Source: Strigamia acuminata
Lineage: Eukaryota > Arthropoda > Chilopoda > Geophilomorpha > Linotaeniidae
Length of the DNA: 64,000 nt
NCBI GenBank assembly: GCA_949358305.1
Contig: CASHSZ010000029.1
Span: forward strand, 1-64,000
Direction of reading: 5' to 3'
In this document: positions 22,893-63,139 of the stretch, piece by piece
Numbering within the stretch: position 1 is the stretch's first letter
Layout of the letters: every line of letters starts with the position of its first letter
The notes under the pieces: model-generated
What the model saw: the letters and a program-made list of their open reading frames with translations, nothing else
Database searches by the model: none
Told to the model about the DNA's origin: nothing
Program-made: the position numbers and the translations under genes

Positions 22893-24016
22893 TGTTGCAA
22901 GACAGCGTAGAGATTGTTGTGCTATTTTATTGTCAATATTTTTACCATTTACTTTGAGTTGATTAAAATCTTTAAGTGTTTTAATTTCCTTTGCCTAATT
23001 GGTATTTTTTCACTTTTCAGATTTTTATTGCTTATTAAAGTGTTTTGACTTGATTTTTATTCATACTTTTCAATATTTAGTAGTGTTTATGCTTTGTATT
23101 GATTTCAAATATCTTATTCCGTGCATTTATTGACTTATTCACTTGTTTTTTGAGAGTTTGTATTGATTTCGAACTGTTTTGGTGCAAATTTCGTTTCCTA
23201 GCATACATTTGCGATGCTAGTGAAGTCATATTTTCTGTTTCCCGTAAAGTTACGGTTCCGTCTTCTAACCTTTTGTTTGGTACTTTTCTAATCATTTGGA
23301 ATTTTATTAAACATTCGTTTCTACTAATTAAAACATGCTCTTTCTATCTAGATGCATCAAAACTGCTTTGGAAGTTCCGTTTGATTGGTTTGAACGTTCG
23401 TTTCCGTCTGCCATAAAAGCGCAGCCGGGAATGTTCGTTTGGCCGATAAATTCGTATTTATTCAATCTGTGTATTTTATTCCGATGTTTTGTGAAGAGAA
23501 TTGATAATTATTCTTATAATTTAATCGATACTTTATTGATTATTTACATTTTAGTGTTTTTACATTCATTTTACGTGTAGTTTTGCCGCCGATGTTATGT
23601 TCGCCGGACGCCATGTTTGATCCAACACCTTTGTTATGTTCGTCGGTCGCCATGTTTGTCCCAAGCGACGATTACACAATGTAACCGTTATTTTTGTATT
23701 TTATATCACATAATTTGCATTTACTATTACATTGCATTATTATTCAGTATGTATTCTTTGATAATTTTGTGCTTTTGTACCGATCGAATTTCAAATGTGA
23801 TCGTTATGTAATTTTCCTGGCCTGTGATTGGCTATCGTCAATCCTTTCTTTCCGAGATCGGTTTATTGCAAATATCTCATTGTTTAACGTGTTTTTGGAC
23901 ATTGTTGTGATTAGCTTTTTTGTTCACCGCATTCTTGTGGTCATTTCAATGTAATTCAATGTATTTTTAGTGCATTTTTAAGCAAATGCCAACTTTGCCG
24001 TAATCTTGTTTCCTCC

Positions 24017-24030
24017 GTTACCATGGTAAC
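24017..24030. promoter_or_regulatory. Palindromic X-box-like site in LTR 1
   Basis: GTTACCATGGTAAC is a perfect 14-bp palindrome resembling the RFX-family X-box consensus. It is copied in the 3' LTR at 31875-31888. Element 2 has the related GTTTCCGTGGCAAC at the matching place (55036-55049). The flanking CCTCC is shared too. Promoter function is inferred. Confidence 0.45.
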
Positions 24031-24158
24031 GAATTCTTTCGTGTATCTGTATTTCGCCGCTATCGGCCTGGCGCGTGCCATATTCGGTACTGCGCATGTG
24101 CGGTTCTCTAAGAACCAATCTAATTGCTGTAATTTCTTCAGTTATTAACCAACCTTTG

Positions 24159-24164
24159 AATAAA
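24159..24164 (+). promoter_or_regulatory. Polyadenylation signal in LTR 1
   Basis: AATAAA followed by a GT-rich stretch (TGTGTTGTGTTTT). The 3' LTR copy at 32017-32022 would serve the element transcript. Confidence 0.6.
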
Positions 24165-24213
24165 TGTGTTGTGTTTTATTAGCTCTTGTTTTAGTTTTAT
24201 TTTCAAACACATT

Positions 24214-24230
24214 CAATGTGTAGTGAGTAG
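24214..24230 (+). promoter_or_regulatory. 17-bp LTR motif shared by all three elements
   Basis: CAATGTGTAGTGAGTAG lies 55 nt after the AATAAA and 225 nt before the LTR end. Element 3 has CAATGTGCAGTGAGTAG and element 2 CAATGTGTCCTGAGTAG at equivalent places. The LTRs are otherwise largely dissimilar, at least between element 3 and the others, so the conservation suggests function. The role is unknown; GTGAGT resembles a splice donor in elements 1 and 3 but not in 2. Confidence 0.55.
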
Positions 24231-24470
24231 TTTAAAAATTCTCAGGCCAACTTATGTTTCCGCCACCTATTGGATACTTGGTGCAGGTGTTCTCCACATT
24301 GTTCCAGCGGTACAACAATGCCATTTGTTGCGGATTTATTGCTCTCCAGTGCGATTTTCGTACTAGCCACGCCATACGACCTTGGGCGAGCTCAAGTGTC
24401 TTGAATTTGGATACGCATCGCCATTCCTTTCTATCTGTCTTGTTGACCTGCAACACAGATACGAAGCTTT

Positions 24471-24493
24471 TGGTAGCCGTGACCAGGATTCCG
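24471..24493 (+). other. Primer-binding site, tRNA-His-like (element 1)
   Basis: TGGTAGCCGTGACCAGGATT begins 15 nt after the LTR end. It resembles the complement of the tRNA-His 3' end (TGGTGCCGTGACCAGGA as recalled from insect genes), with one extra A after TGGT and then 16 contiguous matches. Element 2 has a related sequence at exactly the same 15-nt offset. Confidence 0.7.
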
Positions 24494-24691
24494 TCTGCAA
24501 TTCGTGAGTTTTTCCAGTGCATCATCAATACGTTTGAAAAAGTGTTTGGTGCGACGGAGGAACAATACGTTCGTGTTTCGTCACCCATGTCAAGAGTCAA
24601 CGTTCAACGTGACAGAAGTTACGACGGAGACTGCTTTGGCGGCGAAAACGAACAAAAGTGTGCATGCAGTTGGAGTTCAAGGTCACAACAC

Positions 24692-24760
24692 TGGATAACA
24701 CAACGCGTCGTGTTGGAAAGCGGATTCGCCCCTGGAATAATTGCATTTTACAGTGTTTTG
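24692..24760 (+). other. Leader block conserved between elements 1 and 2
   Basis: 58 of 69 aligned bases match 55682-55750 without a gap, and the same frame is open in both, reading WITQR-VLES-FAP-IIA. Of the ten changed codons, six are non-synonymous, so protein-level constraint is not evident. An RNA packaging or dimerisation signal is an alternative. Confidence 0.5.
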
Positions 24761-25023
24761 CCTTATGAAATTGAAATTTTGGAGATTTTGGTTATTAAGG
24801 GGAACTGTATCAAGTGTCTTTATGGGATTTTGGTAGTTGCATTTGTTGGTTTTTGGGAAAATTTCGATAAAGTGTCTATTTTACAACTTTTGAAGTGTTT
24901 TTTCATTACATGCTTAGTTTTCCACTATAACCGCCATAAGCGGGGGAGATTAGATTTATTTCGAGTAGAACTGACTAGTTTCAAGTTGAATAAACTGTCA
25001 GTAGAGTCAAAATTTAATGTTAG

Positions 25024-25124
25024 GAGTTATTGGCGTGTTTTGTTGCAAAACGAACCGTCAATTGTTTTCAAAAGAGTTTATTGGCGTGCTTTGTTGCAAA
25101 ACGAACCGTCAATTATTTTCAAAC
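25024..25124 (+). repeat. Two-copy tandem repeat, about 51 bp, in leader 1
   Basis: Two adjacent copies of a segment containing TTGTTGCAAAACGAACCGTC then AATTRTTTTCAAA, differing at a few bases. Element 2 shows no matching duplication. Confidence 0.8.
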
Positions 25125-25238
25125 TGTGCAGGGTATTGTGTCACGTTTTATTTACGTACACAAAAACCGCTCAAATTTTTGGTCATCCTCGATTGGCCAA
25201 ACATTTGATATTCTAAAATTCTCACGTGTCACCAAGGA

Positions 25239-25376
25239 CCGTGAAAATTGAGTGCTTTTTGGGGGATAAAATAAAAACGTTTATTCTCTTTAAAGTTAAA
25301 ACAAAAACCGTGAAAATTGAGAAATTTTTGGGGGATAAAATTACAAGGTTTATTCTCTTAAAAATTAAAACAAAGT
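25239..25376 (+). repeat. Two-copy tandem repeat, 69 bp, in leader 1
   Basis: CCGTGAAAATTGAG at 25239 recurs at 25308, each followed by TTTTTGGGGGATAAAAT and TTTATTCTCTT. The copies have diverged moderately, so the duplication is older than the insertion. Confidence 0.8.
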
Positions 25377-25413
25377 TGAATTGTCATGCCCGTTTTTATC
25401 TGTTCTTTCCAAA

Positions 25414-25421
25414 TTTCACAG
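25414..25421 (+). other. Splice-acceptor-like site before Gag (element 1)
   Basis: TTTCACAG preceded by a pyrimidine-rich stretch and followed by CCG. Element 2 has ATTTTACAG followed by CCG at 56331-56339, also just upstream of its Gag ATG. A spliced Gag-Pol mRNA is possible; no transcript evidence is available. Confidence 0.4.
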
Positions 25422-25451
25422 CCGAATTTTTTGTGAGAGAGGACAGAGAAA

Positions 25452-28400
25452 ATGGCGGAACCTACAATGAGAGATCTTCTAACTGAGGATCAAATAGAAG
25501 TGCAACAACAACGTTGGGAATCGCAAGTCACTGCAATGAATCATTTGTTGTCTATATCGGAGAAGACAGCAGATCCAGGTGAACTGGAAGCGCTGGTGCA
25601 AACTGCGAACCCAAAAGAAACGAGAATAGTCGGTGCGCTGAATGATCTACAGGAATATTCGCACCACGGCTATTATCTAGAATGCATTGACAAGCTTGAG
25701 ACTATGCAAGCAAGAGTGGATCTTCTTCGCACGAGATACGAAATTTCAAAGCGATCACTTCCAACTTTGGGAGGAAGATTAAATACGTCGACAAGCTCAA
25801 ACCAGAATACAACCTTGAACGCGACAGCAACGTTTAGAAAAAATTCGAAGCTGCCCAAACTGGATTCCGTAAAATTCGACGGAGATATTTTGAAGTACAG
25901 AACATTCAAAAGCAACTTCGAGACCTCCGTACACAAGGATCCAGACCTGAGTAACATTGAAAAACTCCAGTATTTACAAACTATGTGTACTGGAGAAGCG
26001 GCAATTCTCATCTCAACTTTTCCCCTGATCGAGGAATCCTATGACCTTGCAAGAGAAGAACTCGAAAGACATTTTGGTGATGAGGATGCACAACAAACTG
26101 CGTTAATAAAATCAATTCGAGAATTAAAAGTGGTTTCGAGTATTTATCCAACAAAATCGATAAAAACAAACTTGACCAAGATTTCTGCGACTATTAGACT
26201 TTTAGAGCAACTTAAAATTCCTATTCAGACTTCCGGAGCTTTCTTATTGCCCGACATAATTAGCAAGTTTCCAACTTCAATGGCATTAAGATTTTACCAG
26301 GTTCACGGAATACAAAATAAGAACATTGTTACGTTGCTCAATTTCTTTGTGAATGAAGTTGCGATGGCCGAACGAACTGAAAGCGTTTCTGAAAAATCGA
26401 AAAAAGACAAGAATGAAAAATCTGAAGTGGAGAAACCGAAAGTGAAAGGTTCAATGACCACGTGCGCAGCTACTCAAGACGCCAAGCAGTCTACTAGTGC
26501 CAAAACAAAGAGTGAACCGAAATCTGAAAGCAAGAATACGCCTTTCAAGACAAACAAGTGCATTTTTTGTGAAGATGAACATTTAAACGGCGCTTGTAAA
26601 AAGGATTTCGAAATTAACGCGAAAATCGAAATAGTAAAGAAAAACAGACTGTGTTTTAACTGTTTCAGAACTGGGCATAGAGTGGGAGACTGCAAGGTCA
26701 AATTTTCTTGTAAACATTGTGGTGGGCGACACCACTCCACAATATGCAAAAAATCCGAGGTGAAGAATTCAACGAGCGCTGCGGAGAAGCCGAAGGAGCC
26801 ACAAGTAACAACACATGTTTCATGCGCAATCTCGACGACTCTACAACTAATGATATTCACCGCGGACCTCAAAACAAAATCAGGAGGAACTCACAGCATT
26901 CGAGGGATGATTGATCCGGGAAGCCATCGATCGTTCATCACAAAAGAATTTGTTGAAAGACTGAAACTGAAAAAGTGCGGCAGTGTTTCTGCCACCACAC
27001 AACGTTTTAATGACTCGTCTCCAGCAGCCACGGACTATGATGTGTTTAATGTCACACTGCAGAGTAAAAATGACACTCAAGATTTGAAACTTTCAATGCT
27101 TTCTGTGGAAAATTTGCCACGAGTGCAGGGCATTCTTAACTCATCAATAATAGACAAGGTGAAGAAGTTAAACCTTGAACTTGCTGAAGACCTACCAGCT
27201 AAGACTTCTCAAATCGATGTGCTTTTAGGAGTCGACGTGTGGTGGAAGGTCGTTAAGGACGGCAAGAAAAAAGTAAACGCAGATCTTGGATTAATAAATA
27301 CAATTTTTGGATGGGTCTTGTCCGGAGCGGCGGGGAACACCAATTTATTCGAAGATGATGAAGAATTGACAACATGTTGCAATACATGCGACTTAGACAT
27401 CCAAGAAAAATTGGACAAGCTGTGGAACTTGGAAGCAATCGGAATAAACGCGGGAGAAAAAGAATCCGACTTTATTCGCGATCGATTCGAATCAACTACG
27501 AAACGTCTAGACGATGGACGTTATGAAGTCATGCTTCCATTCAATGGACAGGAAGTCGACTTGGAATCCAATTGGGAGTTGGCCATGAACCAACTGGCTA
27601 ACACACTCAAAAGAATAGATGCTAACGAGGATTACAAAAAACGTTACGACGAGTCCATGTGGCAGTATATTCACGAAAATCACGCGGAGGAAGTCCCAAA
27701 AGAAGAGCGTTTTCTGAAGAAAGGAACATACAATATACCTCACCATCCTGTAATCAAGGAGGATCGAGACACGACGAAATTTCGAGTAGTGTTCAACGCG
27801 TCTTCATCCAAGAAGGAGAAACTTTCCCTCAATGACTGTTTATTTCCGGGACCCTCCCTTAATCCAGACTTAATACTCGTTATTGTGAGATTCCGTCTCT
27901 ATTGTATTCCAATAATAGCAGACATTAAGCAAGCGTTTCTCCAGGTTATGATCAACCCAACTCAAACAAACTTTTTACGTTTTTTGTGGGTCGCTCGTGA
28001 CTATTTCAAAGAGCCATACTCATGGCAAAATTTGTGGAATAATCTAATGGTTCTGCGAATGATTGTCGTGCCATTTGGCGTCATTTCTTCTCCATTCCTC
28101 TTGTGTGCGACGATTAGGAAACAAGCGAAACAATTTGAAGAAACTCATGCAAAAGAAGTCGACGCACTCGATGATGGAATCTTCATGGATGATTTGACGT
28201 CAGGAGGGGATTTTACAGCCGACACAACATCACATTGCGAGAAACTGAAAATGATATTAGACGACGGAAAGCTTCCCCTCGTGAAGTGGGCGACCTCAAG
28301 CAAGGACGTCTTCAACAATTTGAAAAAAGAAGGTTTTCATATGCGAGGAGAGGAGTTTTCGGACTTAGGAATTATAAAAATGCTTGGAATATTGTGGAAC

Positions 28401-30692
28401 ACGGCAGAAGATGTCATGATGTTTAACATTCCGACAATTGAAAAAATTCCGAATACAAAGCGAGAAGTTGTTTCATTAATGGCTTCCATATTCGATCCAA
28501 TGGGACTCATTGCTCCTGTTGTGCTTCAAATGAAACTGCTAGTTCAAGCAATCTGGATTAGAACAAAAAACTGGGATGAAAAGATTCTTGACTCAGAGAA
28601 AAAAGAAGTCGAAGAATGGAGTCAAGACATACAAAAATTGAAAGAATTGAAAGTACAACGTTGGCTGCAGACTTATTCCGGTCAAGACATCACTTTAGAA
28701 GTTTTCTGTGACGCAAGCACAAAGGCATTTGGCTGTTCAATTTTTGTCGTCAATCTGGAGGGCAAAAGAACTTTATTGTTGAGTAAATGTCGTATTGCGC
28801 CGACGAAAAAAGTGACTCTTCCTCGACTTGAATTAACTGCAGCAGTGGTTGGAGTTAGGATGACCAAGTACCTGTTAGAAAACTTTCTTCCCGGGTACCC
28901 AATCACTGAAGTGCGATACTACTCGGACTCCACCATAACTTTAGCATGGATAAATAGTGACAAAAACGTGTGGAAGCCATACGTCTCGAACCGTGTGCAA
29001 GAAATTACTTCTTCAACCAAACCCAAACAATGGTCTCATGTACCAACGGAATTTAACCCAGCAGATTTATTAACTCGACCACATAACTCAAAAACATTGA
29101 TGCAAAATAAACTTTGGTGGTTTGGAGTTGATGTCTCAAAACTAGAAAAAACAGAAATTATACAAGAGATTCTTCCAGAAGAGGAACGAAAAATCGTTGT
29201 GATGACAATTCAAGTGACAGAAAGCTTTATTGGTCGATTCTTCAAACGATTCCGAAATTACAACCGACTTTTGAGAGTTTTCTCATACATTTTGCGATGG
29301 AAAAACAAACTTTTGCGCGGTGAGCCTCTCTCGCCACTCGAGTTAGAGGACAACCAATTGAAGATCCTGCAGTTTTCTCAGAAATTACATTTTTCTGAGG
29401 AGATTGATGATGTGAAAAACAAAAGAAAACTGTCTAAACACTCCACCCTACGCAATTTCGAGCTCTTCATTGACGAGGACGGATTACTTCGACTTCGTAG
29501 CCGCTTGAAAAAATCTTTATTGACATTTGATGAAGTGTATCCAATTATTTTGCATTATGATAGTTGGATAACAAGACTGTTAATTAAAAAAGTGCATTTG
29601 GAGTTGCTTCACGGTGACATAAGCGAAACTTTGTATCACCTACGCGAACAATTTTGGATTATAAGAGGACGAAGAACTATACAAACAGTTATTCGAGAAT
29701 GTGAGATTTGCCGACGAGGAAAACTTGCACGCAACAACCCTTCAACGGGTGACCTTCCTGCTGAACGTGTGACACCAGCGGCGCCATTTCAAAACACCGG
29801 AGTTGACCACTTGGGTCCCATTTATGTCGGCAGCAACAAGAAAGAAAAGAAAAAAGTATATATCTTGCTTTTTACGTGTATGGTGACCCGTTCCATACAT
29901 TTAGAAGTATCAGAGGACCTTTCTGTGCCAAAGTTTTTGCTTGCAATGAGAAGATTTGGGGCACGCTATGGATACCCCGGGAAGATTTTCTCTGACAACA
30001 GTAAGACGTTTGAGCGCGGAAGCCTCGAATTACAATCGTGGGGAAAACTCATCGGTCATAAAGATGTGAAAACATTCCTATCTGAAAAAAGGGTGCTATG
30101 GACATTCATCCCACCGCTGTCTCCATGGATGGGCGGAGCGTGGGAACGTCTAGTCCGCTCAGTAAAAGATAAACTTCGAAAGACATTGTTGCGCAGCACC
30201 GTAGACTTAGAAACTCTCCAAACTTTGGCTCTGGAAATTAGTTCAGTGCTAAATTCACGACCTTTATCTTATGTCCCCGACAGTGTTGATGGTGGTAGAA
30301 TTTTGGCACCTGAAAACTTCTTAACAGGAGGTATGCCTAAATACCTAATAAACAAACAATTGAGTGCAATTAAAAAATCCGATTTGAGAAAACTGGACAT
30401 TAAACGACGTCAATTTATTTGGGAGTTCTGGAAAATTTGGAAAAAGAGTTACCTCATGCAATTGAGGAATTTTTATGAATCAAAAGGTGATAAGTTCTTC
30501 AAAAACCCTAAAGTAGACCAAATAGTGCTTCTAGAAAAAATGGGTACTAACCCATATTTTTGGCCACTTGCCAGGATAAAAGAAATTTTTCCCGGTGAGG
30601 ATGGTCAAATCCGTGTGATAAAAGTTGTGCTACCCGATGGACGTGAGTTAAAAAGGTCAGTCAAGCATGTGAGAGCCCTAGAACTTGAGTGA
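25452..30692 (+). CDS. gag-pol: BEL/Pao Gag-Pol polyprotein, element 1
   Basis: A 1,746-aa uninterrupted polyprotein that would build the particle, copy the RNA and integrate the cDNA. Order: DUF1759-type Gag core about 135-300; three CCHC knuckles (C370/C373/H377/C382, C401/C404/H409/C414, C420/C423/H427/C432); DUF1758-type aspartic protease with D488 in DPGSHRS and a VLLGVD strand near 590; reverse transcriptase about 650-1000 with D824 and FMDD (D913, D914); RNase H with D1087, E1127 and D1159; integrase zinc finger H1382/H1387/C1417/C1420; DDE core D1452, D1515, E1565 (spacing 62 and 49); DUF5641-like tail from about 1645. The start AAAATGGCG has a favourable context. Gag and Pol share one frame, so no frameshift is needed. 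FMDD instead of the usual YMDD is a mild deviation. The protein is closely related to element 2 throughout. Confidence 0.96.
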   Translation: MAEPTMRDLLTEDQIEVQQQRWESQVTAMNHLLSISEKTADPGELEALVQTANPKETRIVGALNDLQEYSHHGYYLECIDKLETMQARVDLLRTRYEISKRSLPTLGGRLNTSTSSNQNTTLNATATFRKNSKLPKLDSVKFDGDILKYRTFKSNFETSVHKDPDLSNIEKLQYLQTMCTGEAAILISTFPLIEESYDLAREELERHFGDEDAQQTALIKSIRELKVVSSIYPTKSIKTNLTKISATIRLLEQLKIPIQTSGAFLLPDIISKFPTSMALRFYQVHGIQNKNIVTLLNFFVNEVAMAERTESVSEKSKKDKNEKSEVEKPKVKGSMTTCAATQDAKQSTSAKTKSEPKSESKNTPFKTNKCIFCEDEHLNGACKKDFEINAKIEIVKKNRLCFNCFRTGHRVGDCKVKFSCKHCGGRHHSTICKKSEVKNSTSAAEKPKEPQVTTHVSCAISTTLQLMIFTADLKTKSGGTHSIRGMIDPGSHRSFITKEFVERLKLKKCGSVSATTQRFNDSSPAATDYDVFNVTLQSKNDTQDLKLSMLSVENLPRVQGILNSSIIDKVKKLNLELAEDLPAKTSQIDVLLGVDVWWKVVKDGKKKVNADLGLINTIFGWVLSGAAGNTNLFEDDEELTTCCNTCDLDIQEKLDKLWNLEAIGINAGEKESDFIRDRFESTTKRLDDGRYEVMLPFNGQEVDLESNWELAMNQLANTLKRIDANEDYKKRYDESMWQYIHENHAEEVPKEERFLKKGTYNIPHHPVIKEDRDTTKFRVVFNASSSKKEKLSLNDCLFPGPSLNPDLILVIVRFRLYCIPIIADIKQAFLQVMINPTQTNFLRFLWVARDYFKEPYSWQNLWNNLMVLRMIVVPFGVISSPFLLCATIRKQAKQFEETHAKEVDALDDGIFMDDLTSGGDFTADTTSHCEKLKMILDDGKLPLVKWATSSKDVFNNLKKEGFHMRGEEFSDLGIIKMLGILWNTAEDVMMFNIPTIEKIPNTKREVVSLMASIFDPMGLIAPVVLQMKLLVQAIWIRTKNWDEKILDSEKKEVEEWSQDIQKLKELKVQRWLQTYSGQDITLEVFCDASTKAFGCSIFVVNLEGKRTLLLSKCRIAPTKKVTLPRLELTAAVVGVRMTKYLLENFLPGYPITEVRYYSDSTITLAWINSDKNVWKPYVSNRVQEITSSTKPKQWSHVPTEFNPADLLTRPHNSKTLMQNKLWWFGVDVSKLEKTEIIQEILPEEERKIVVMTIQVTESFIGRFFKRFRNYNRLLRVFSYILRWKNKLLRGEPLSPLELEDNQLKILQFSQKLHFSEEIDDVKNKRKLSKHSTLRNFELFIDEDGLLRLRSRLKKSLLTFDEVYPIILHYDSWITRLLIKKVHLELLHGDISETLYHLREQFWIIRGRRTIQTVIRECEICRRGKLARNNPSTGDLPAERVTPAAPFQNTGVDHLGPIYVGSNKKEKKKVYILLFTCMVTRSIHLEVSEDLSVPKFLLAMRRFGARYGYPGKIFSDNSKTFERGSLELQSWGKLIGHKDVKTFLSEKRVLWTFIPPLSPWMGGAWERLVRSVKDKLRKTLLRSTVDLETLQTLALEISSVLNSRPLSYVPDSVDGGRILAPENFLTGGMPKYLINKQLSAIKKSDLRKLDIKRRQFIWEFWKIWKKSYLMQLRNFYESKGDKFFKNPKVDQIVLLEKMGTNPYFWPLARIKEIFPGEDGQIRVIKVVLPDGRELKRSVKHVRALELE

Positions 30693-30725
30693 TTTTTTTT
30701 TGTGATTTTTTGCGTGGTTCTCCAT

Positions 30726-30750
30726 CTCTGTCCTCTCGCCGGCAATTCGC
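30726..30750 (+). promoter_or_regulatory. Pre-3'-LTR tract, element 1 (pyrimidine-rich plus CGCCGGCAATTCGC)
   Basis: The place where a purine-rich plus-strand primer is expected holds CTCTGTCCTCTC followed by CGCCGGCAATTCGC directly against the 3' LTR. The second motif is conserved in element 2 (CGCTGGCAATTCGT) and element 3 (CGCCGGCAATCTA). TCTCTGTCCTCTC (30725-30737) is the exact complement of GAGAGGACAGAGA just upstream of the Gag ATG (25437-25449). Confidence 0.6.
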
Positions 30751-32313
30751 TGTTGCAAGACAGCGTAGAGATTGTTGTGCTATTTTATTGTCAATATTTT
30801 TACCATTTACTTTGAGTTGATTAAAATCTTTAAGTGTTTTAATTTCCTTTGCCTAATTGGTATTTTTTCACTTTTCAGATTTTTATTGCTTATTAAAGTG
30901 TTTTGACTTGATTTTTATTCATACTTTTCAATATTTAGTAGTGTTTATGCTTTGTATTGATTTCAAATATCTTATTCCGTGCATTTATTGACTTATTCAC
31001 TTGTTTTTTGAGAGTTTGTATTGATTTCGAACTGTTTTGGTGCAAATTTCGTTTCCTAGCATACATTTGCGATGCTAGTGAAGTCATATTTTCTGTTTCC
31101 CGTAAAGTTACGGTTCCGTCTTCTAACCTTTTGTTTGGTACTTTTCTAATCATTTGGAATTTTATTAAACATTCGTTTCTACTAATTAAAACATGCTCTT
31201 TCTATCTAGATGCATCAAAACTGCTTTGGAAGTTCCGTTTGATTGGTTTGAACGTTCGTTTCCGTCTGCCATAAAAGCGCAGCCGGGAATGTTCGTTTGG
31301 CCGATAAATTCGTATTTATTCAATCTGTGTATTTTATTCCGATGTTTTGTGAAGAGAATTGATAATTATTCTTATAATTTAATCGATACTTTATTGATTA
31401 TTTACATTTTAGTGTTTTTACATTCATTTTACGTGTAGTTTTGCCGCCGATGTTATGTTCGCCGGACGCCATGTTTGATCCAACACCTTTGTTATGTTCG
31501 TCGGTCGCCATGTTTGTCCCAAGCGACGATTACACAATGTAACCGTTATTTTTGTATTTTATATCACATAATTTGCATTTACTATTACATTGCATTATTA
31601 TTCAGTATGTATTCTTTGATAATTTTGTGCTTTTGTACCGATCGAATTTCAAATGTGATCGTTATGTAATTTTCCTGGCCTGTGATTGGCTATCGTCAAT
31701 CCTTTCTTTCCGAGATCGGTTTATTGCAAATATCTCATTGTTTAACGTGTTTTTGGACATTGTTGTGATTAGCTTTTTTGTTCACCGCATTCTTGTGGTC
31801 ATTTCAATGTAATTCAATGTATTTTTAGTGCATTTTTAAGCAAATGCCAACTTTGCCGTAATCTTGTTTCCTCCGTTACCATGGTAACGAATTCTTTCGT
31901 GTATCTGTATTTCGCCGCTATCGGCCTGGCGCGTGCCATATTCGGTACTGCGCATGTGCGGTTCTCTAAGAACCAATCTAATTGCTGTAATTTCTTCAGT
32001 TATTAACCAACCTTTGAATAAATGTGTTGTGTTTTATTAGCTCTTGTTTTAGTTTTATTTTCAAACACATTCAATGTGTAGTGAGTAGTTTAAAAATTCT
32101 CAGGCCAACTTATGTTTCCGCCACCTATTGGATACTTGGTGCAGGTGTTCTCCACATTGTTCCAGCGGTACAACAATGCCATTTGTTGCGGATTTATTGC
32201 TCTCCAGTGCGATTTTCGTACTAGCCACGCCATACGACCTTGGGCGAGCTCAAGTGTCTTGAATTTGGATACGCATCGCCATTCCTTTCTATCTGTCTTG
32301 TTGACCTGCAACA
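30751..32313 (+). repeat. Element 1, 3' LTR
   Basis: A 1,563-bp copy of the 5' LTR at offset 7,858, with no difference seen by eye. AATAAA at 32017-32022 should end the element transcript. The shared 17-bp motif is at 32072-32088. Confidence 0.95.
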
Positions 32314-32317
32314 CTTG
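32314..32317 (+). repeat. Target-site duplication of element 1, right copy
   Basis: CTTG follows the CAACA end of the 3' LTR, after which the satellite resumes with TGGTGTTTG. Confidence 0.88.
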
Positions 32318-35158: not shown

Positions 35159-35162
35159 GAGA
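35159..35162 (+). repeat. Target-site duplication of element 3, left copy
   Basis: GAGA precedes the LTR and is repeated at 41738-41741. Together they restore CATTCA-GAGA-CATTGG of the satellite. Confidence 0.88.
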
Positions 35163-35352
35163 TGTTTCTGGCAAGGTCGCAGGCGACAACCAGGCCAGAA
35201 GGAGGGGCGGCAATACTTGACTGCTGCTTGGCTAAAATTGATACACAGAAGTTGGCCAAAGACTTGAAGAAATGCAAACACTGGACTTGAACTTGCTGCT
35301 TCACATGATGATCTGCCACTGGTGAGTTCAAGGAGGAGGAAGGAGGATTTTT

Positions 35353-35369
35353 CTACTCACTGCACATTG
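35353..35369 (-). promoter_or_regulatory. 17-bp shared LTR motif, element 3
   Basis: In sense CAATGTGCAGTGAGTAG, 16 of 17 identical to element 1. It lies about 58 nt beyond the AATAAA and 190 nt before the LTR end. The other copy is at 40571-40587. Confidence 0.55.
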
Positions 35370-35421
35370 CTTTCTGGTTGTATAGAGAAATGAGACTTGG
35401 AGAGAAATAAAAAGCAACCAT

Positions 35422-35427
35422 TTTATT
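35422..35427 (-). promoter_or_regulatory. Polyadenylation signal, element 3
   Basis: AATAAA in sense within the 3' LTR, followed by T-rich and GT-containing DNA; likely the transcript end signal. The 5' LTR copy is at 40640-40645. Confidence 0.55.
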
Positions 35428-36505
35428 CTCTAAATTCTTAACAACACTACTACAATTGAATCACGAGGATTTTACAAAGAAGTCACACTTTAACAATAAT
35501 AAGAAACAACAAGTGTAACTATCTCCACATTGTATAAGGGCACTTGCACTTAAAGTTACAGAGGTCTCTAAGTGCTTGTAAAGAGAAATAAGTACTGCTG
35601 GCACAACAAAACTACCGTAGAAGTTAATAGTTGAAAACACATAAGCCTAACAGCAAGTATTTGACATTAAATGCAAAAGTATACATTAACAACAGTCTCT
35701 AAACACAATGCTCATTGAGAACTAAATTATTCACTCTAAAACACACTGAACAACTCATAAAATAGAGAAAAGAATAAGTAAAGACATTTTAGACCAATGA
35801 GCTGGCAACTTTACAGTAAGTGCAGAAGTTAAGTTATAAATCAACACAGATAAATCTTAAACTTAACACTTTTACATTGCATAATAATTAAGTGATTAAT
35901 TATTAATCAGAACCCACAAAAACTCTTTGGGATTAAACATTTTCTCCTCTCTTTACAGATACAAGTAGACCACTCCCACAGTAATGGCCGACAATGTAAA
36001 CAGAGATCACTTGCAGGAAGATAAAAAGGCTTGAAATTAGCTCACCAGACAGGCTACACACAATCTAAGTTAACATAACGCTTAATTGGTTAGTAATATA
36101 CAGAAAACAAACAGAAATTGATTGAAACAGCTTAAAACTGATAATAACATACATTTCTCATTCTAGTACCCTTTTGCTGTCTGAGAGCATCATTACACCT
36201 TGTCACTACATTGACAGTAGTGGACTGGAAACAGGAAAACACTTGAAAACATCAAAACATGCATAACACAGGTAAACAAGATAGAAAATAAATTCTAAGT
36301 GGAAAAATAACTAATGTAAAACTCTTTTCTTCCCAGATTTATCCGGTCAGATCAACCAGTACTGAGAAATTCACTCAAACTAACTCAAAGAAGACTTATA
36401 TTCAGATAAGTGCCTAATTAAATTCCCAATCTAAGATAAATATTAAAAACCCTTTTTAATAATTCCAGATGACTAATTTTTAAGACGTTTAGCAACTTTC
36501 CTTTA

Positions 36506-36519
36506 TGTTGCTAGCAACA
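36506..36519. repeat. 14-bp palindrome at the LTR terminus of element 3
   Basis: TGTTGCTAGCAACA is its own reverse complement and forms the U3 terminus. The same palindrome ends the other LTR at 41724-41737. Confidence 0.8.
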
Positions 36520-36541
36520 TAGATTGCCGGCGAAAAGAAAG
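36520..36541 (-). promoter_or_regulatory. Pre-3'-LTR tract, element 3
   Basis: In sense CTTTCTTTT then CGCCGGCAATCTA directly against the 3' LTR: the same pyrimidine tract plus CGCCGGCAAT layout as in elements 1 and 2. Only 35 nt separate the TK stop codon from the LTR. Confidence 0.55.
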
Positions 36542-36554
36542 TGCGAACAACCCA

Positions 36555-39500
36555 TCATTTAGTTTGATTACTTCTGGTCTTTGATGATAATATTTGGGAG
36601 ACCTCTTTCACCTTTTTGTATTTCACTCTGGATGGCAAGATTCTTTGACGGATCAAATATGGTATCCACGGAGGTATTCTTCGGTTGACAATCATACAAC
36701 TAAGTCGAATAATTCCGTTGATGATTTTCCTTTTTGTCTCTACTGACTCCATGGGCTTTGAGAAACATACTCGACAGGTTGGTTTGTATTTGTCGATCCC
36801 TCCTATCACCTTGACTCTGGTTTCGTGCGAAATTCGTCTTGAAAATTCAGCTTTATCTCCGCAAAAATAACATTTTGCTTGTAGTTTCACAACAGACTCG
36901 GCTAGTGGAACTAACTTGGATATCTGATCAAATGGCTTCCTCTTGAAATCGACGTCTAATGCGGCGACTATTACCTTTTTCTTTTGCTCAGCCATTTCAT
37001 TTGAAAAAGTAAAAATGTCGGGAAAAAACTGTCCTTCATCAATTCCGATTGTCTTCATTAATTTCGTTTTTTTCACAGCATTGGTTAGGCTACTGGTCGC
37101 GATTGCTTCTCGTCGATGACCATCGTGGGTCACGACTTCGGATTTACTGTAACGTTCGTCATTGGAGTGCTTAATGAGCAAGGACGACGTCTTCTCTTCT
37201 TTTTCTAAGATCTTCAATAACTTGGTCGTTTTCCCGGCATACATTGGACCAAGGATAAGGTGAATTCCTCTTTGATTGTTCGATAAGACATTTTTCTTTT
37301 TCCAGAAATTGAAAATCAATTCTCCGGTCCATCTCAAGATTGCACACAATTTGGGTAAACTGGGCACTTGGTTTGCTTTCTTTCTCAGTGACTCCGACTG
37401 ATTTCGCCCTCGTAATTCCGGCTTCATGTCCGAGCTTGAAGTTCTGTTGGCCAATCCTCCATCCTTGAACGACTTTTTCGTTTTTTGGAGGGTGGTATCC
37501 AGTTCCTCTTTTTCCAGACCACTGGAGAGGCTCGCGGCAAAACAAGAAAGTGTGACGTCTGTCTGTTTATTCACACCGGGTTCGCCATTCATGTCGGACG
37601 GTGATTTCGGAATTAACTGGACTATTTTGTTTTCGTCATTTTCAGGTTGATTTGAGATCACTTCTTCTTTGGACTCGACCGCCATGCAAGAAATGTTGCA
37701 CGCTGCCATGTTTTCTTCAAGCGGGTTGTTTGGTCTCAGTCGACCGTTTAGAATCCACCCAAAAATTGTCTGCATTAATCCCAACTCGTCGTTGATTTTT
37801 CGGCTTCCACCTTGACAAATCTTCCACCATGCGTTGCTTCCTAATAAGACGTCAATGTCTTCCGATTCTGACGGATGTATCTCAGCCATCTCAAGTCCGA
37901 GTGATTGGACTTGCTTTATGGCTTCTGCTCCAATTATCCCTTTGACTTTCGGGAGCGTGTCGGTTTCTAATGCAAGGATTGATGTCTTTTCCGTTCCGTG
38001 TCTTGATTGTAGTTCGAATCTAAAGACATCATGTGTCGTCGGAACTGGCTTTTTGTTGAGCAGACACTGTGTCATCGTGTGTAGTGTCTCGATCTTTTGC
38101 ATCCGGAATTTATTTACTAGTCTCTTCGTGACGTAGGAGCGATGACTTCCTGGATCTAGTAATCCGCGGACGGGGTACATGTCTCCATTTTTCTTCACAA
38201 AAAGAGCAGTGAAGACCATCAGTTGAATCTCCACCGACTCGGTAAGCGATACATTAGTAGACACGTTTTCTTCTTTTGGTGTAATCGCTTTTTCTTTGTT
38301 GTTTTTGTTGCAGATCGATGTGTGATGTCTTCCACCACACAAGCGACAACAAAACTTCACGGTACATTCTTTGGCTGTGTGGTTATATCTCAAGCAGTTG
38401 AAACAAAGTCGTTTCTTCTTCACTATTTCGATCCTCGCTGGTACATCGAGATCCGCATCACAATTTGCGTGTGCGTGATCACCATCACAATAAGCGCAGG
38501 CGGGTTTGCGGTTTGGATTTGACTTGGAATTCATACTCAATTTTCCATTCTCGGAAGTCACGAATGAGGACATGGTTCCAGTTGGTCTTTCTCTTGTTTC
38601 CTTTGAAGTTTTCTCAAATTTTTCTGACTTCTTCAGATGAGCGCGCTTAAGGAGAACGCTTTCTTCCGACAATTCAGCCAGTTGTATCTCGGTTGCTACG
38701 AAGTCCAGAAAAACGTTAACATCATCAACTTTTCCTTGATGCTTTCGGTAAAAACGTTGGGAGATCTCCGGTGGAAATTTTCTAAGTAGTTCTGGAATAA
38801 GGTACGTTCCAGTAGTGTCAACTGACACAGACAGTTGCGCCATGGTCCGGACAGCAGATGCCAATGACGTGAATAGAGCTTTGAGTGGCTCGATTGGGTA
38901 GAGATCGAAAACGGGTTTCGACTCCCTAATCATCTTTGAAATAGCATTTCTCTGCGTGTTTTCAGAACCGAATAGACTCTCCAATGTGTTTTTCGCTAAT
39001 GGGTAGGCGTCATCAGTTATTGGGTACGACTTGATTGCGGATTCTGCAGCCCCAGTGCAGCATGACCTCAGATATATAAGCTTTTCCACGTTCGAAAGCT
39101 CCGTGTTCTGATCAACTGCTGATTCGAATAAATTCGCAAAACCTCTATATTCAGTTGCATCGCCACTAAATTTGGCAATGTCGGTTTTCGGCAATCTCGT
39201 GTTTCTCCTAGATGAAGCGGACGTCTGGTTTAAACTGGAATTCTGTCCCGGATGGGAACCAAATTGCCCTGCCATTTTTCCAGACACTTTTGCTCTTTGC
39301 TTCAATAAATTTACTCTGGTTCTAATGTCTTCAATTCGTTGAAGCCCCGCTAAATAGTCCTCTCTTTTTGACTCGTCTTTAAGAGCTTTCAATTCGTCTG
39401 CGAGATCACTCAATTGCTGGTCAACCGTTATTTGCATGGCTTCCAGCTCTCCTCCGTCTAGAATGTTGACTGAAGATCCCAGCAGATCCTCGGCTCCTTG

Positions 39501-39560
39501 AGCCTTTGCTTTCCAAATGACCTCCTTTTCCTCGAGATCAGCAGCGGATAATGTAGCCAT
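36555..39560 (-). CDS. gag-pro-TK: Gag-protease-thymidine kinase fusion polyprotein
   Basis: A 1,001-aa frame from the ATG at 39560 (context ATTATGGCT); an upstream GTG at 39569 is in frame but unlikely to be used. DUF1759-type Gag core about 125-290. Three CCHC knuckles: C355/C358/H362/C367, C386/C389/H394/C399, C405/C408/H412/C417. DUF1758-type protease with D469 in LDPGSHRS, and IFGW near 600. Similarity to BEL proteins stops near 627, just before RT would begin. A low-complexity linker runs to about 764. A TK1-type thymidine kinase follows at about 765-935: P-loop GPMYAGKT (771-778), IDEGQ with likely catalytic E842, DFKRKPF (871-877), zinc cysteines C897/C900/C929/C932, and the VIGG-DKY lasso region. 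The family transfers phosphate from ATP to thymidine, giving dTMP. A basic tail of about 66 aa follows, unrecognised, with no KEN motif. No introns are visible in the TK part. Protease cleavage sites were not identified. Confidence 0.93.
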   Translation of the reverse strand: MATLSAADLEEKEVIWKAKAQGAEDLLGSSVNILDGGELEAMQITVDQQLSDLADELKALKDESKREDYLAGLQRIEDIRTRVNLLKQRAKVSGKMAGQFGSHPGQNSSLNQTSASSRRNTRLPKTDIAKFSGDATEYRGFANLFESAVDQNTELSNVEKLIYLRSCCTGAAESAIKSYPITDDAYPLAKNTLESLFGSENTQRNAISKMIRESKPVFDLYPIEPLKALFTSLASAVRTMAQLSVSVDTTGTYLIPELLRKFPPEISQRFYRKHQGKVDDVNVFLDFVATEIQLAELSEESVLLKRAHLKKSEKFEKTSKETRERPTGTMSSFVTSENGKLSMNSKSNPNRKPACAYCDGDHAHANCDADLDVPARIEIVKKKRLCFNCLRYNHTAKECTVKFCCRLCGGRHHTSICNKNNKEKAITPKEENVSTNVSLTESVEIQLMVFTALFVKKNGDMYPVRGLLDPGSHRSYVTKRLVNKFRMQKIETLHTMTQCLLNKKPVPTTHDVFRFELQSRHGTEKTSILALETDTLPKVKGIIGAEAIKQVQSLGLEMAEIHPSESEDIDVLLGSNAWWKICQGGSRKINDELGLMQTIFGWILNGRLRPNNPLEENMAACNISCMAVESKEEVISNQPENDENKIVQLIPKSPSDMNGEPGVNKQTDVTLSCFAASLSSGLEKEELDTTLQKTKKSFKDGGLANRTSSSDMKPELRGRNQSESLRKKANQVPSLPKLCAILRWTGELIFNFWKKKNVLSNNQRGIHLILGPMYAGKTTKLLKILEKEEKTSSLLIKHSNDERYSKSEVVTHDGHRREAIATSSLTNAVKKTKLMKTIGIDEGQFFPDIFTFSNEMAEQKKKVIVAALDVDFKRKPFDQISKLVPLAESVVKLQAKCYFCGDKAEFSRRISHETRVKVIGGIDKYKPTCRVCFSKPMESVETKRKIINGIIRLSCMIVNRRIPPWIPYLIRQRILPSRVKYKKVKEVSQILSSKTRSNQTK
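36756..37268 (-). other. TK1-like: Captured TK1-type thymidine kinase domain
   Basis: In-frame 3' part of the fusion. Every hallmark of the cellular and large-DNA-virus TK1 family that I can recognise is present: the P-loop, a DER-Y segment after the first strands, THDGH, IGIDEGQFFPDI, VAALD, KPF, LVPLAESVVKL, paired CxxC zinc ligands and the substrate lasso. The core is about 170 aa, close to the family's catalytic core, and nothing essential seems lost. It differs from the dNK and herpesvirus-type kinases, which use another fold and motifs. Capture from a host mRNA is the simplest origin; a DNA-virus TK is possible. Confidence 0.92.
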
Positions 39561-40380
39561 AATCCTCACCGAGAAATGAAGAATTCAAAGATCAGTTCAG
39601 GATTCAAACTCAACTTAACTGACTAAATTGGTTAACAAGAAATTGTCTAATTCTTTTACACTCTAGGATTTACTGAACACACAAAAACGGGATGGATATC
39701 CACAAGCTGTTAACAGGATTGAAACACACGGGATGTTACTAGGATTGGCAAATTAACCCCCAAAATTCAATAATTAAAGGTAATTGACAATTCTCTTATT
39801 TTCACAATTGAGTTTCTGACTAGATACTCGTTTTAAATTGGGATACCAACACTAAAGCTTAGTATTATTCACTAATTCACTGGATATTCTCTAAATTCCA
39901 CAAACTGGAATCGAGAATTTATTCAAACTGTTAAGACTTAAACTTCTTCTCCCCCCAACTACACCAGTTTCTAATCAAAAACTCTTTTGAAATGATTACA
40001 GCAGCAAATTCGGATATTATTCTATTTAAATAATAATTCTTAATAATTATTTCTTCAAATCTTCTTGTAGGATGTACATTGCGTTGTGTTTGGAATTGAT
40101 TGTCGTGCAGGATCGCTCGTACTCTCGAAGCCTTGCTTGATCCAAGTTGAAAAACATCTTGACCATCTTGACAATTTGAGAATCCAACTTGAAAAACCCA
40201 CTTTTTTGCCTGTGAAAGGCGGACGAGAGCATACACTTCACTGTAGTGGCACAGCTTCAATGGCACTTTACACATAAAAGCTTTGCACAGCTTGAGAACA
40301 AAACCCACTGATGAATTTTGCAGCACACATGAAGGTCCACTGAGATAACTGGAAGAAATCCTTGGTTCACGGCACCAAAT
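39561..40380 (-). other. Element 3 untranslated leader
   Basis: About 820 bp between the 5' LTR and the fusion ATG. It holds the primer-binding site at its start and otherwise AT-rich DNA with only incidental open frames; the longest extends into the LTR and resembles nothing I recognise. Apart from a short ACACAACGC, I see no clear counterpart of the leader block shared by elements 1 and 2, and no acceptor-like site next to the ATG. Confidence 0.75.
40362..40377 (-). other. Primer-binding site, tRNA-His-like (element 3)
   Basis: In sense TGGTGCCGTGAACCAAGG starts 3 nt after the 5' LTR. The first 11 bases match the complement of the tRNA-His 3' end exactly; one extra A follows. This is the closest to standard position and sequence among the three elements. 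Confidence 0.75.
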
Positions 40381-41737
40381 TGTTTCTGGCAAGGTCGCAG
40401 GCGACAACCAGGCCAGAAGGAGGGGCGGCAATACTTGACTGCTGCTTGGCTAAAATTGATACACAGAAGTTGGCCAAAGACTTGAAGAAATGCAAACACT
40501 GGACTTGAACTTGCTGCTTCACATGATGATCTGCCACTGGTGAGTTCAAGGAGGAGGAAGGAGGATTTTTCTACTCACTGCACATTGCTTTCTGGTTGTA
40601 TAGAGAAATGAGACTTGGAGAGAAATAAAAAGCAACCATTTTATTCTCTAAATTCTTAACAACACTACTACAATTGAATCACGAGGATTTTACAAAGAAG
40701 TCACACTTTAACAATAATAAGAAACAACAAGTGTAACTATCTCCACATTGTATAAGGGCACTTGCACTTAAAGTTACAGAGGTCTCTAAGTGCTTGTAAA
40801 GAGAAATAAGTACTGCTGGCACAACAAAACTACCGTAGAAGTTAATAGTTGAAAACACATAAGCCTAACAGCAAGTATTTGACATTAAATGCAAAAGTAT
40901 ACATTAACAACAGTCTCTAAACACAATGCTCATTGAGAACTAAATTATTCACTCTAAAACACACTGAACAACTCATAAAATAGAGAAAAGAATAAGTAAA
41001 GACATTTTAGACCAATGAGCTGGCAACTTTACAGTAAGTGCAGAAGTTAAGTTATAAATCAACACAGATAAATCTTAAACTTAACACTTTTACATTGCAT
41101 AATAATTAAGTGATTAATTATTAATCAGAACCCACAAAAACTCTTTGGGATTAAACATTTTCTCCTCTCTTTACAGATACAAGTAGACCACTCCCACAGT
41201 AATGGCCGACAATGTAAACAGAGATCACTTGCAGGAAGATAAAAAGGCTTGAAATTAGCTCACCAGACAGGCTACACACAATCTAAGTTAACATAACGCT
41301 TAATTGGTTAGTAATATACAGAAAACAAACAGAAATTGATTGAAACAGCTTAAAACTGATAATAACATACATTTCTCATTCTAGTACCCTTTTGCTGTCT
41401 GAGAGCATCATTACACCTTGTCACTACATTGACAGTAGTGGACTGGAAACAGGAAAACACTTGAAAACATCAAAACATGCATAACACAGGTAAACAAGAT
41501 AGAAAATAAATTCTAAGTGGAAAAATAACTAATGTAAAACTCTTTTCTTCCCAGATTTATCCGGTCAGATCAACCAGTACTGAGAAATTCACTCAAACTA
41601 ACTCAAAGAAGACTTATATTCAGATAAGTGCCTAATTAAATTCCCAATCTAAGATAAATATTAAAAACCCTTTTTAATAATTCCAGATGACTAATTTTTA
41701 AGACGTTTAGCAACTTTCCTTTATGTTGCTAGCAACA
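40381..41737 (-). repeat. Element 3, 5' LTR (right on the + strand)
   Basis: 1,357-bp LTR that should drive the Gag-protease-TK transcript. No difference from the other copy was noticed (offset 5,218). It carries the terminal palindrome at 41724-41737 and the 17-bp motif at 40571-40587. I cannot identify a TATA box with confidence. Confidence 0.95.
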
Positions 41738-41741
41738 GAGA
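41738..41741 (+). repeat. Target-site duplication of element 3, right copy
   Basis: GAGA directly after the AACA end of the LTR, followed by CATTGGTCTTG of the satellite. Confidence 0.88.
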
Positions 41742-53966: not shown

Positions 53967-53970
53967 ATTC
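53967..53970 (+). repeat. Target-site duplication of element 2, left copy
   Basis: ATTC directly before the TGTTGCA of the 5' LTR; repeated at 63136-63139. Confidence 0.88.
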
Positions 53971-55442
53971 TGTTGCAAACAACGTGGAATAATTTAGAAA
54001 CTACTTTTATTGCCAATTTGTGTCTGAATAAATGTTTCCAAAGTGTGTTTTATTTTGCATAACATTTCAGTTTTTATTTACAGGATTTTTGCATTATTAA
54101 AATGTTTTTAGTGCTTTCAGATACTGATGTTTGATGAAATGTGATATTCCATTGTTTATTGCATTTATTTCTAGTGTTTATTGCGTGATTTTGTGTTACT
54201 TTATTCATTTTCTATCAATTTGTGTGATTTCGGGTGAAATTTGGTGCATTTGTCGTTAAACAGTTCACTAGTGTTATTGACGTGACGTCATATTTCAAGT
54301 TCTAGTTCGGTTTTTGTTCAAACTTCTAACCTTCCGTTTGGACGGAATTTTGATGGTTAGAATTGTTTTTGACATTGTTTTAGACTAATTTGGGGGTGAT
54401 CTGTTGATTCGTGCACTCTAATTTCGTCCCGGAACAGCCGTTTTTCTGCTACGAGCGATCGTGACGGACCCCGCATGTGCGTTGCCGTCCAAGATCGTTT
54501 CGTTCGGTTTGCGGTTGATTTCAAGTGTTCTTTCATTAAAAAGTGTCTTGTTTTGCGGGAAATTACATTCCCTGAACTTATTTACTTATTTCAAAGTGTT
54601 TACATAAGTTATTTCTTGTGTTGAAATTCAAACCTTGTGTTTTGCCGCCAATGTAGAGTTTACCGGACGCCATGTTGGATTTTGCCGATGATTTGTAAAT
54701 CTTTCATGTCGCTTTGTTTTTATATCTCAATTGGTGTTAGTACTATTTAGTTTTAATGTATTTCAATGCAAAATCTTTACTTATTTGGTTTTGTGTGTGA
54801 CTTTGAATTCAAACTTGATGATTATGTCATTTTGCTTGTCTTTGATTGGTTAGGCCCAATTGTCTGCCTAGCGATCACTGTTTTCGCTGTTTTCTCAGTG
54901 TTTTGATTAACGAATTTTGTTGTTACGATAGACTTTATTATTCCTGAGTTTTTTGTGCTCATTTTGAGCTATTACACATTATTTTTAATACATTTCTCGT
55001 AATTTGTTGTCTTTGCTTGAAATTGCATTTCCTCCGTTTCCGTGGCAACGGAGTATTTTCTTTATTGTACTTTGACGACAATTGGCTTGTTGCGTGCCTT
55101 TTGATTGATAATGTGTAATTATTCAGTTGCCATTTTATATTTGATTAAAATAGTCGTGTTAATGTTAACTCTTGTATTTTCTGCTTTTGACCCATTTCCA
55201 ATGTGTCCTGAGTAGAGAACCATTTTTCCCAGACTGGCCAATGGATCAGCAAGCACTTGGATACCATGCAAAAGTGTTTCCAACAGTTAAACCTTCATGT
55301 AACAGGAGATTTTGAGGCGAATCAAGTGCATTTCCACACGGTACACGTACGAATTTCACTATACGATCGTTTGAGTTTGTTGGCGGGAGTTTCGAATCGC
55401 CACATCTCAGTTCTTCTCTGTTCCTGTTGACTGACCGCAACA
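53971..55442 (+). repeat. Element 2, 5' LTR
   Basis: 1,472 bp starting TGTTGCAAAC and ending GACCGCAACA. Recognisable common blocks with LTR 1 are ACCGGACGCCATGTTGGAT (YY1-like), CCCCGCATGTGCG, the X-box-like GTTTCCGTGGCAAC (55036-55049), ATTAAA (55144-55149) at the polyadenylation position, and CAATGTGTCCTGAGTAG (55199-55215). A further AATAAA lies near the LTR start (54027-54032). Confidence 0.95.
55199..55215 (+). promoter_or_regulatory. 17-bp shared LTR motif, element 2
   Basis: CAATGTGTCCTGAGTAG lies 55 nt after ATTAAA and 227 nt before the LTR end, almost the same layout as element 1 (55 and 225). It lacks the GTGAGT of the other two. The 3' copy is at 62892-62908. Confidence 0.5.
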
Positions 55443-61605: not shown

Positions 61606-61618
61606 TGTGTGTTTTGCA

Positions 61619-61663
61619 GACTTCTCTCATCTCTCTTCTCTCTCTTTCTCGCTGGCAATTCGT
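61619..61663 (+). promoter_or_regulatory. Pre-3'-LTR tract, element 2
   Basis: A long CT-rich stretch (61619-61649) followed by CGCTGGCAATTCGT directly against the 3' LTR. As in elements 1 and 3, no purine-rich plus-strand primer is visible in the sense strand. Confidence 0.6.
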
Positions 61664-63135: not shown

Positions 63136-63139
63136 ATTC
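63136..63139 (+). repeat. Target-site duplication of element 2, right copy
   Basis: ATTC after the CAACA end of the LTR; the satellite continues AGAGACATTGG. Confidence 0.88.

What the first reader, a model, noticed from the sequence alone, without database searches (positions are those of the whole stretch)
36555..39560. LTR retrotransposon that replaced its polymerase with a thymidine kinase
One uninterrupted frame joins BEL-type Gag (three CCHC knuckles) and aspartic protease to a complete-looking TK1-type thymidine kinase, with RT, RNase H and integrase gone. Retroviral dUTPases are a precedent for nucleotide-metabolism enzymes in retroelements; I do not know of a TK in an LTR retrotransposon. 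Fused to Gag, the kinase would be carried into the particle, so it could raise local dTMP and then dTTP for reverse transcription, above all in cells outside S phase, where cellular TK1 is low. Intact active-site residues in a recent copy argue that the domain is under selection.
Basis: partly seen in the sequence, partly recalled or inferred. Interest (0 to 1): 0.96.

Follow-up and report, generated by a model that had tools for sequence, protein, structure and literature searches.

The report
Centipede jumping gene carrying thymidine kinase
A family of centipede retrotransposons lacks its own DNA-copying enzymes and carries instead a well-preserved cellular enzyme that makes a DNA building block, probably to help its RNA be copied by enzymes borrowed from related elements.

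Summary
A 6,575-bp LTR element (35163-41737, minus strand; identical 1,357-bp LTRs; 4-bp duplication) has one frame joining BEL-type Gag, a protease-like part, a linker and a complete TK1-type thymidine kinase (Pfam E 1e-53). RT, RNase H and integrase are absent. It is not a lone artefact: a capped search scored 100 BEL-type TK rows, 84 of them in frames of at least 995 codons (hand count). Span and chromosome lengths fit the HiFi assembly of the centipede Strigamia acuminata. Two deep lineages (55% Gag, 54% TK identity) carry the same fusion, and their kinases form one clade. The kinase is under purifying selection inside the elements (dN/dS 0.14-0.20 in four pairs, P 8e-6 or less); the adjacent linker is less constrained (0.47-1.16). 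Autonomous BELs in the same window share its terminal signals. Most likely this is a non-autonomous BEL family, moved in trans, that keeps a working TK, probably to raise dTTP. Enzyme activity, packaging and trans-mobilisation are inferred, not shown. My five paper searches and one protein search found no TK in an LTR retrotransposon; Repbase was not searched.

The parts
40381..41737 (-). 5' LTR, 1,357 bp
   Evidence: identical to the 3' LTR
35163..36519 (-). 3' LTR, 1,357 bp
   Evidence: identical to the 5' LTR; flanked by TCTC on both outer sides
40360..40377 (-). primer-binding-site-like stretch TGGTGCCGTGAACCAAGG
   Evidence: directly after the 5' LTR; similar stretch in families B, C, D and in both autonomous BELs; the tRNA was not identified
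39561..40380 (-). leader between 5' LTR and ATG
   Evidence: 40 genome matches to 39600-40380, 37 of them directly before Gag-TK frames
36555..39560 (-). Gag-protease-linker-TK-tail open frame, ATG to stop
38280..39560 (-). Gag with DUF1759 and three CCHC knuckles (38460-38498, 38364-38405, 38310-38348)
37650..38279 (-). aspartic-protease-like part, DPG motif at 38142-38162
   Evidence: homology to the protease part of C and of autonomous BELs; not called by Pfam in this copy
37281..37649 (-). linker of weak constraint
   Evidence: dN/dS 0.57 (A-B), 0.71 (A-A2)
36735..37280 (-). TK1-type thymidine kinase (Pfam match 36762-37265); P-loop 37224-37250, IDEGQFF 37023-37043, zinc-type CxxC pairs 36858-36872 and 36762-36776
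36558..36734 (-). C-terminal tail, partly kept in family C (59% over 34 codons)
36520..36533 (-). signal TCGCCGGCAAT+CTA before the 3' LTR
   Evidence: like that of two autonomous BEL families
22893..32314 (+). neighbouring autonomous BEL (frame 25452-30692), candidate type of helper
   Evidence: LTRs; Pao peptidase, integrase and DUF5641 domains
53971..63135 (+). second neighbouring autonomous BEL (frame 56353-61605), candidate type of helper
   Evidence: LTRs; domains incl. weak RVT_1

Best explanation
A family of non-autonomous BEL/Pao LTR retrotransposons of a centipede, in which a TK1-type thymidine kinase stands in place of RT-RNase H-integrase at the end of the Gag-protease polyprotein. 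SHOWN from sequence: the fusion, its copy number, recent insertion with target duplications, absence of pol, an intact kinase active site, and purifying selection on the kinase within the element lineages. INFERRED: its RNA is reverse transcribed and integrated by enzymes of autonomous BELs of the same genome; Gag carries the kinase into the particle with the element's own RNA, so the benefit falls on its own copies; the kinase makes dTMP which host kinases turn into dTTP, where host salvage is limiting.
For: Fusion and LTRs. 138 of 238 candidates scored; 100 BEL-type rows, 84 in frames of at least 995 codons by hand count. Duplications in A, B, C. TK dN/dS: A-B 0.17, A-A2 0.20, B-A2 0.19, C-G 0.14; P 8e-6, 4e-7, 1e-7, 2e-21; TK against linker P 0.06, 0.03, 0.002, 0.0004. 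BEL kinases one clade 98/95. P-loop and DEGQFF in 16 of 16 frames held; zinc cysteines invariant in the aligned rows. TK1 fold. Pre-3'LTR signal shared with autonomous BELs, pattern 280 times in the genome, 0 for the reversed control. At least 96 copies of B1-type RT (96 of 1,041 candidates scored).
Against: No activity, transcript or particle evidence. No autonomous element with a close Gag was found: the B1 Gag is only 34-37% identical, so trans-mobilisation rests on short shared signals, which could be inherited without present use. No canonical polypurine tract is evident before the 3' LTR. The linker is also constrained in C-G (0.47, P 0.002), so the contrast is one of degree. The C-D pair has 2 replacement and 0 silent changes in TK, too few to tell. 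A, B and A2 pairs are not independent, and TK and Gag of A, B and A2 have different histories. The sequenced TK tree had long branches meeting and no myriapod host TK.
Confidence: 0.55

Rival explanations
1. The kinase is kept for a non-metabolic job: TK1 enzymes form tetramers (recalled), and a nucleotide-binding oligomer at the end of Gag could aid assembly, packaging or targeting in place of pol.
For: Every Gag made from this frame carries the domain; it sits where pol sits in autonomous BELs.
Against: P-loop, catalytic DEGQFF and zinc cysteines are all kept in the families examined, more than a scaffold role needs.
Confidence: 0.15
2. The kinase acts outside the element's own cycle, for example as a host-used or host-harming enzyme, or it alters nucleoside specificity; the element merely spreads it.
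For: The A, B and A2 frames have Ser at the place of human Thr163, C, D and G have Thr; T163S in human TK1 shifts specificity (title). Other TK genes of this genome are amplified too.
Against: Selection acts on a domain fused to Gag in dozens of heterochromatic copies, which fits element use better than host use.
Confidence: 0.15
3. The TK is a passenger captured by chance and carried neutrally.
For: Retroelements do pick up host sequence; the linker evolves much faster than the kinase.
Against: Purifying selection in four pairs and open frames in 84 of 100 BEL-type rows.
Confidence: 0.04
4. Assembly artefact.
For: The window scaffold is unplaced and satellite-rich; raw reads were not inspected.
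Against: The same junction in many copies on several chromosomes and scaffolds, and 98-fold HiFi with QV 59.6 if the species is as inferred.
Confidence: 0.01

Closest known systems
BEL/Pao LTR retrotransposons (Belpaoviridae)
   Same: LTRs, DUF1759 Gag with three knuckles, protease-like part, 4-5 bp duplications, primer-site-like stretch; ICTV profile read whole (PMC8742986)
   Different: no RT, RNase H or integrase; a TK in their place; no clear polypurine tract; LTRs of 1.36 kb against 0.2-1.2 kb in the profile
Non-autonomous Gag-only LTR elements (TR-GAG of plants)
   Same: LTRs and Gag without pol (papers seen only as a search listing)
   Different: carries a captured enzyme; animal BEL type
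Retroelements with dUTPase (retroviruses; bdelloid rotifer LTR elements)
   Same: nucleotide-metabolism enzyme in a retroelement polyprotein, in rotifers between PR and RT (PMC5408684, passages)
   Different: TK, not dUTPase; pol lost
Acute transforming retroviruses with Gag-oncogene fusions (recalled)
   Same: host gene fused to Gag, pol lost, helper needed
   Different: the captured gene is metabolic and kept over long divergence in many germline copies
Cellular and viral TK1-type kinases (human TK1, vaccinia TK)
   Same: same fold and active-site motifs
   Different: fused to Gag; in the tree the element's kinases group with other TKs of this genome (97/93), not with the one poxvirus row sampled

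Membership tests
BEL/Pao LTR retrotransposon | BEL-type Gag (DUF1759) with CCHC knuckles | tested here: met
   knuckles read directly
BEL/Pao LTR retrotransposon | LTR pair with short target duplication | tested here: met
BEL/Pao LTR retrotransposon | pol with PR, RT, RNase H, integrase | tested here: not met
   only a protease-like part; no RT, RNase H or integrase. It is therefore filed as a non-autonomous derivative of BEL/Pao, not as an autonomous member
BEL/Pao LTR retrotransposon | primer-binding site for tRNA-Arg or tRNA-Gly | tested here: inconclusive
   site-like stretch present; tRNA not identified
TK1-type thymidine kinase | sequence family and fold | tested here: met
TK1-type thymidine kinase | P-loop, catalytic Glu motif, four zinc cysteines | tested here: met
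   the role of each residue is recalled
TK1-type thymidine kinase | phosphorylates thymidine | not testable with these tools
   needs an assay
Non-autonomous Gag-bearing LTR element (TR-GAG-like) | LTRs and Gag, no pol | tested here: met
Non-autonomous Gag-bearing LTR element (TR-GAG-like) | mobilised in trans by an autonomous partner | tested here: inconclusive
   recent insertions with duplications and signals shared with autonomous BELs; no direct evidence, no close-Gag partner found

The most novel reading that the evidence does not exclude
A retroelement lineage that trades metabolism for polymerase: the TK elements supply thymidine nucleotide in or around the particle and obtain RT and integrase from autonomous BELs, a lasting division of labour in which each side may raise the other's success, mattering most in germline cells where host TK is low.
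Probability: 0.25. Interest if true: 0.93.

Novelty: new variant of a known kind. Interest (0 to 1): 0.86.

Why it matters
dNTP supply is a known limit on reverse transcription outside S phase (recalled, from retroviruses). Viruses answer it with dUTPases, thymidine kinases or by removing host dNTP-degrading enzymes (recalled). A retrotransposon lineage that lacks a polymerase and keeps a thymidine kinase under selection makes two open questions testable: whether thymidine nucleotide limits retrotransposition in an animal germline, and how a non-autonomous element can gain from coding for an enzyme.

Tried and rejected
Chaetognath host: suggested by the compact mitochondrial stretch; rejected because COX1 is closest to a centipede (84%) and horseshoe crabs and because span and chromosome lengths fit Strigamia acuminata. 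Gag-TK fusions elsewhere: the kinase region searched among proteins of 0.55-1.75 times the query's length in 5.8 billion sequences gave 1 hit of 469 candidates, a Trypanosoma congolense TK of 849 aa; eukaryotic TE frames are often not annotated, so this is weak. An autonomous twin sharing the leader: 40 of 58 candidates scored; 37 lead directly into Gag-TK-type frames (hand match), 2 are cut short (L035, L036), 1 (C8:7129167) lies about 2.1 kb from the next Gag and was not read. Rfam and tRNA scans of the window: nothing. The other amplified TK repeats: two flanking stretches of one copy showed a Copia-like integrase frame by eye and no gene that I could assign to the repeat (no family search run); left open. 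The first dN/dS script had an index error; its numbers are not used. The zinc-cysteine pattern was written with the wrong spacing and returned False for all 16 rows; the cysteines are taken from the alignments.

Full report
WHAT IS THERE. On the minus strand of 35163-41737 lies an LTR element of 6,575 bp: two 1,357-bp LTRs without a difference, flanked by the duplication TCTC, inside a 140/147-bp satellite. Between the LTRs are a leader with a primer-site-like TGGTGCCGTGAACC and one long frame, 36555-39569. It holds BEL-type Gag (DUF1759 E 2e-17), three CCHC knuckles, a protease-like part, a linker, a thymidine kinase (PF00265 E 1e-53, residues 769-936) and a tail. No RT, RNase H or integrase was found. 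The kinase matches human TK1 at E 2.5e-43. An AlphaFold model of the last 315 residues (mean pLDDT 78.4; 149 residues at 90 or more) matches human TK1 chains with TM 0.89-0.95, normalised by target.

WHERE IT IS. The held genome has 237,517,015 bases in 157 contigs; the window is the start of contig C40. COX1 of its mitochondrial contig is nearest to a centipede (Mecistocephalus, 84%) and horseshoe crabs among the best 120 rows listed. Contig lengths 66.99, 37.79, 16.99, 16.15, 12.25, 9.84, 9.63 and 10.34 Mb equal chromosomes 1, 2, 4, 5, 7, 9, X and Y of Strigamia acuminata, and 14.71 fits chromosome 6, given as 14.72 (PMC10556566, passages, which gives 237.5 Mb in 158 scaffolds, 98-fold HiFi, QV 59.6). 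The species name is my inference.

NOT ONE COPY. tblastn of the kinase end gave 138 scored rows of 238 candidates. By hand count 100 are BEL-type and 38 belong to three other TK repeats. Of the 100, 84 lie in frames of at least 995 codons: 13 of 15 A-type, 34 of 34 B-type, 32 of 34 C-type, 5 of 6 D-type, 0 of the other 11 (one of those has 991). Stops marked TAA in the C rows lie where the query runs past the frame's end. A search with Gag-protease scored 69 of 1,312 candidates; all 69 rows are of A/B or C/D type or close to them, so other Gags were not reached. A and C share 55% of Gag and 54% of TK residues and the same architecture. Their kinases form one clade (98/95); the 12 TK rows of this genome form a wider clade (97/93) against 33 outside rows. 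No myriapod host TK was in that tree, and the program warned of long branches meeting.

SELECTION. Nei-Gojobori counts for the kinase: A-B 11 replacement changes in 423 sites against 17 silent in 123, dN/dS 0.17; A-A2 0.20; B-A2 0.19; C-G 0.14 with dS 0.97; P 8e-6, 4e-7, 1e-7, 2e-21. The linker in the same pairs gives 0.57, 0.71, 1.16 and 0.47; the first three do not differ from neutral (P 0.12, 0.27, 0.70) but the fourth does (P 0.002). TK against linker: P 0.06, 0.03, 0.002, 0.0004. Gag and protease are as constrained or more (for instance C-G 0.09 and 0.08). The tail is mixed: 7 replacement and 0 silent changes in A-B, 0.23 in A-A2, 0.34 in C-G. C-D has 2 replacement and 0 silent TK changes, too few to use. 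A, B and A2 are not independent of each other; C-G is a separate lineage. Within each set the members already share the fusion, so this selection most likely acted inside the element. Between A and C silent sites are saturated.

MOSAICS. A and B are 98.5-100% identical in 200-bp steps of LTRs, leader and most of Gag-protease but 86-98% through the linker-TK stretch; A2 has an old Gag (dS 2.6) with a recent linker and TK (dS 0.11, 0.24). Linker-TK modules have thus been exchanged between element lineages, so equal divergence of Gag and TK should not be assumed within this group.

HOW IT MOVES. The window holds two autonomous BELs of other families (25452-30692 and 56353-61605) with Pao peptidase, integrase and DUF5641 domains; RVT_1 was listed for the second only, E 4e-6, under its cut-off. 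The stretch before the 3' LTR reads TCGCCGGCAATCTA in A, TCGGCGGCAATCTC in C, TCGCCGGCAATTCGC in B1, TCGCTGGCAATTCGT in B2, each followed by TGTTGC or TGTTTC. The pattern TCGCCGGCAAT-N2..7-TGTTGC occurs 280 times in the genome and 0 times read backwards; the listed places end in CTA (A/B type) or TTCGC, TTCGT, TTCTC. I did not check that each stands before an LTR, and since these are repeats the 280 are not independent. Duplications are 4 bp in A, C, B1 and B2, 5 bp in B, and only 3 shared bases in D. At least 96 copies of B1-type RT exist (96 of 1,041 candidates scored). The simplest reading is that autonomous BEL enzymes act on the TK elements' RNA; shared descent of the signal without present use is not excluded.

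WHAT THE KINASE DOES. Seen: P-loop and DEGQFF in 16 of 16 frames held, zinc cysteines invariant in the alignments, TK1 fold, constraint. Inferred: activity. A, B and A2 frames have Ser at the place of human Thr163, the C, D and G frames Thr; the solved human T163S mutant is titled as shifting specificity towards a nucleoside analogue, so changed specificity is possible. A role in dTTP supply rests on TK biochemistry and on the precedents of dUTPases in retroelements (PMC5408684, passages) and TKs of DNA viruses (recalled). Co-packaging through Gag would explain why selection sees the enzyme. This is reasoning, not data.

NOVELTY. Five paper searches showed no title or abstract start that reports a TK inside an LTR retrotransposon. 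One search listed all 30 papers that hold both 'thymidine kinase' and 'LTR retrotransposon'; I saw titles and abstract starts only. Repbase and subscription journals were not searched. The Strigamia maritima genome paper has no 'thymidine' in its main text (PMC4244043, passages). Gene capture by retroelements and Gag-only non-autonomous elements are known kinds; this combination appears new.

Noticed in passing
L014, L020, L017 and their copies in G000: Three other TK1-type genes sit in dispersed, many-copy repeats without a recognised transposon gene, 20 and 5 rows belong to them, and two copies of one repeat are 99.98% identical over 9 kb. A 1.2-kb stretch of that repeat had at least 40 places.
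   Followed up: partly
window element compared with L024 and L025: Linker-TK modules have been exchanged between element lineages.
   Followed up: partly
G000:C13 (length of the Y chromosome), C8 6.8-7.5 Mb, C1 64-67 Mb, C5 12-15.6 Mb: TK elements and autonomous BELs cluster in a few zones; 12 of 49 A/B rows lie on C13, which is 4.4% of the genome.
   Followed up: no
L022, 1-597 and 6583-7359: A C-type TK element lies between two pieces of a BEL integrase frame, as if inserted into it.
   Followed up: no
L026, 288-9901; L025: Two TK elements in tandem; in L026 they share the middle LTR.
   Followed up: no
window 1-22894, 32314-35162, 41736-53970, 63136-64000: 140/147-bp (287-bp double) satellite arrays in which three BEL elements of the window are embedded.
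   Followed up: no
window 25452-30692, 56353-61605, 36555-39569: The protease motif is DPG in both autonomous BELs and in the TK element, not the usual DSG or DTG (usual form recalled).
   Followed up: no
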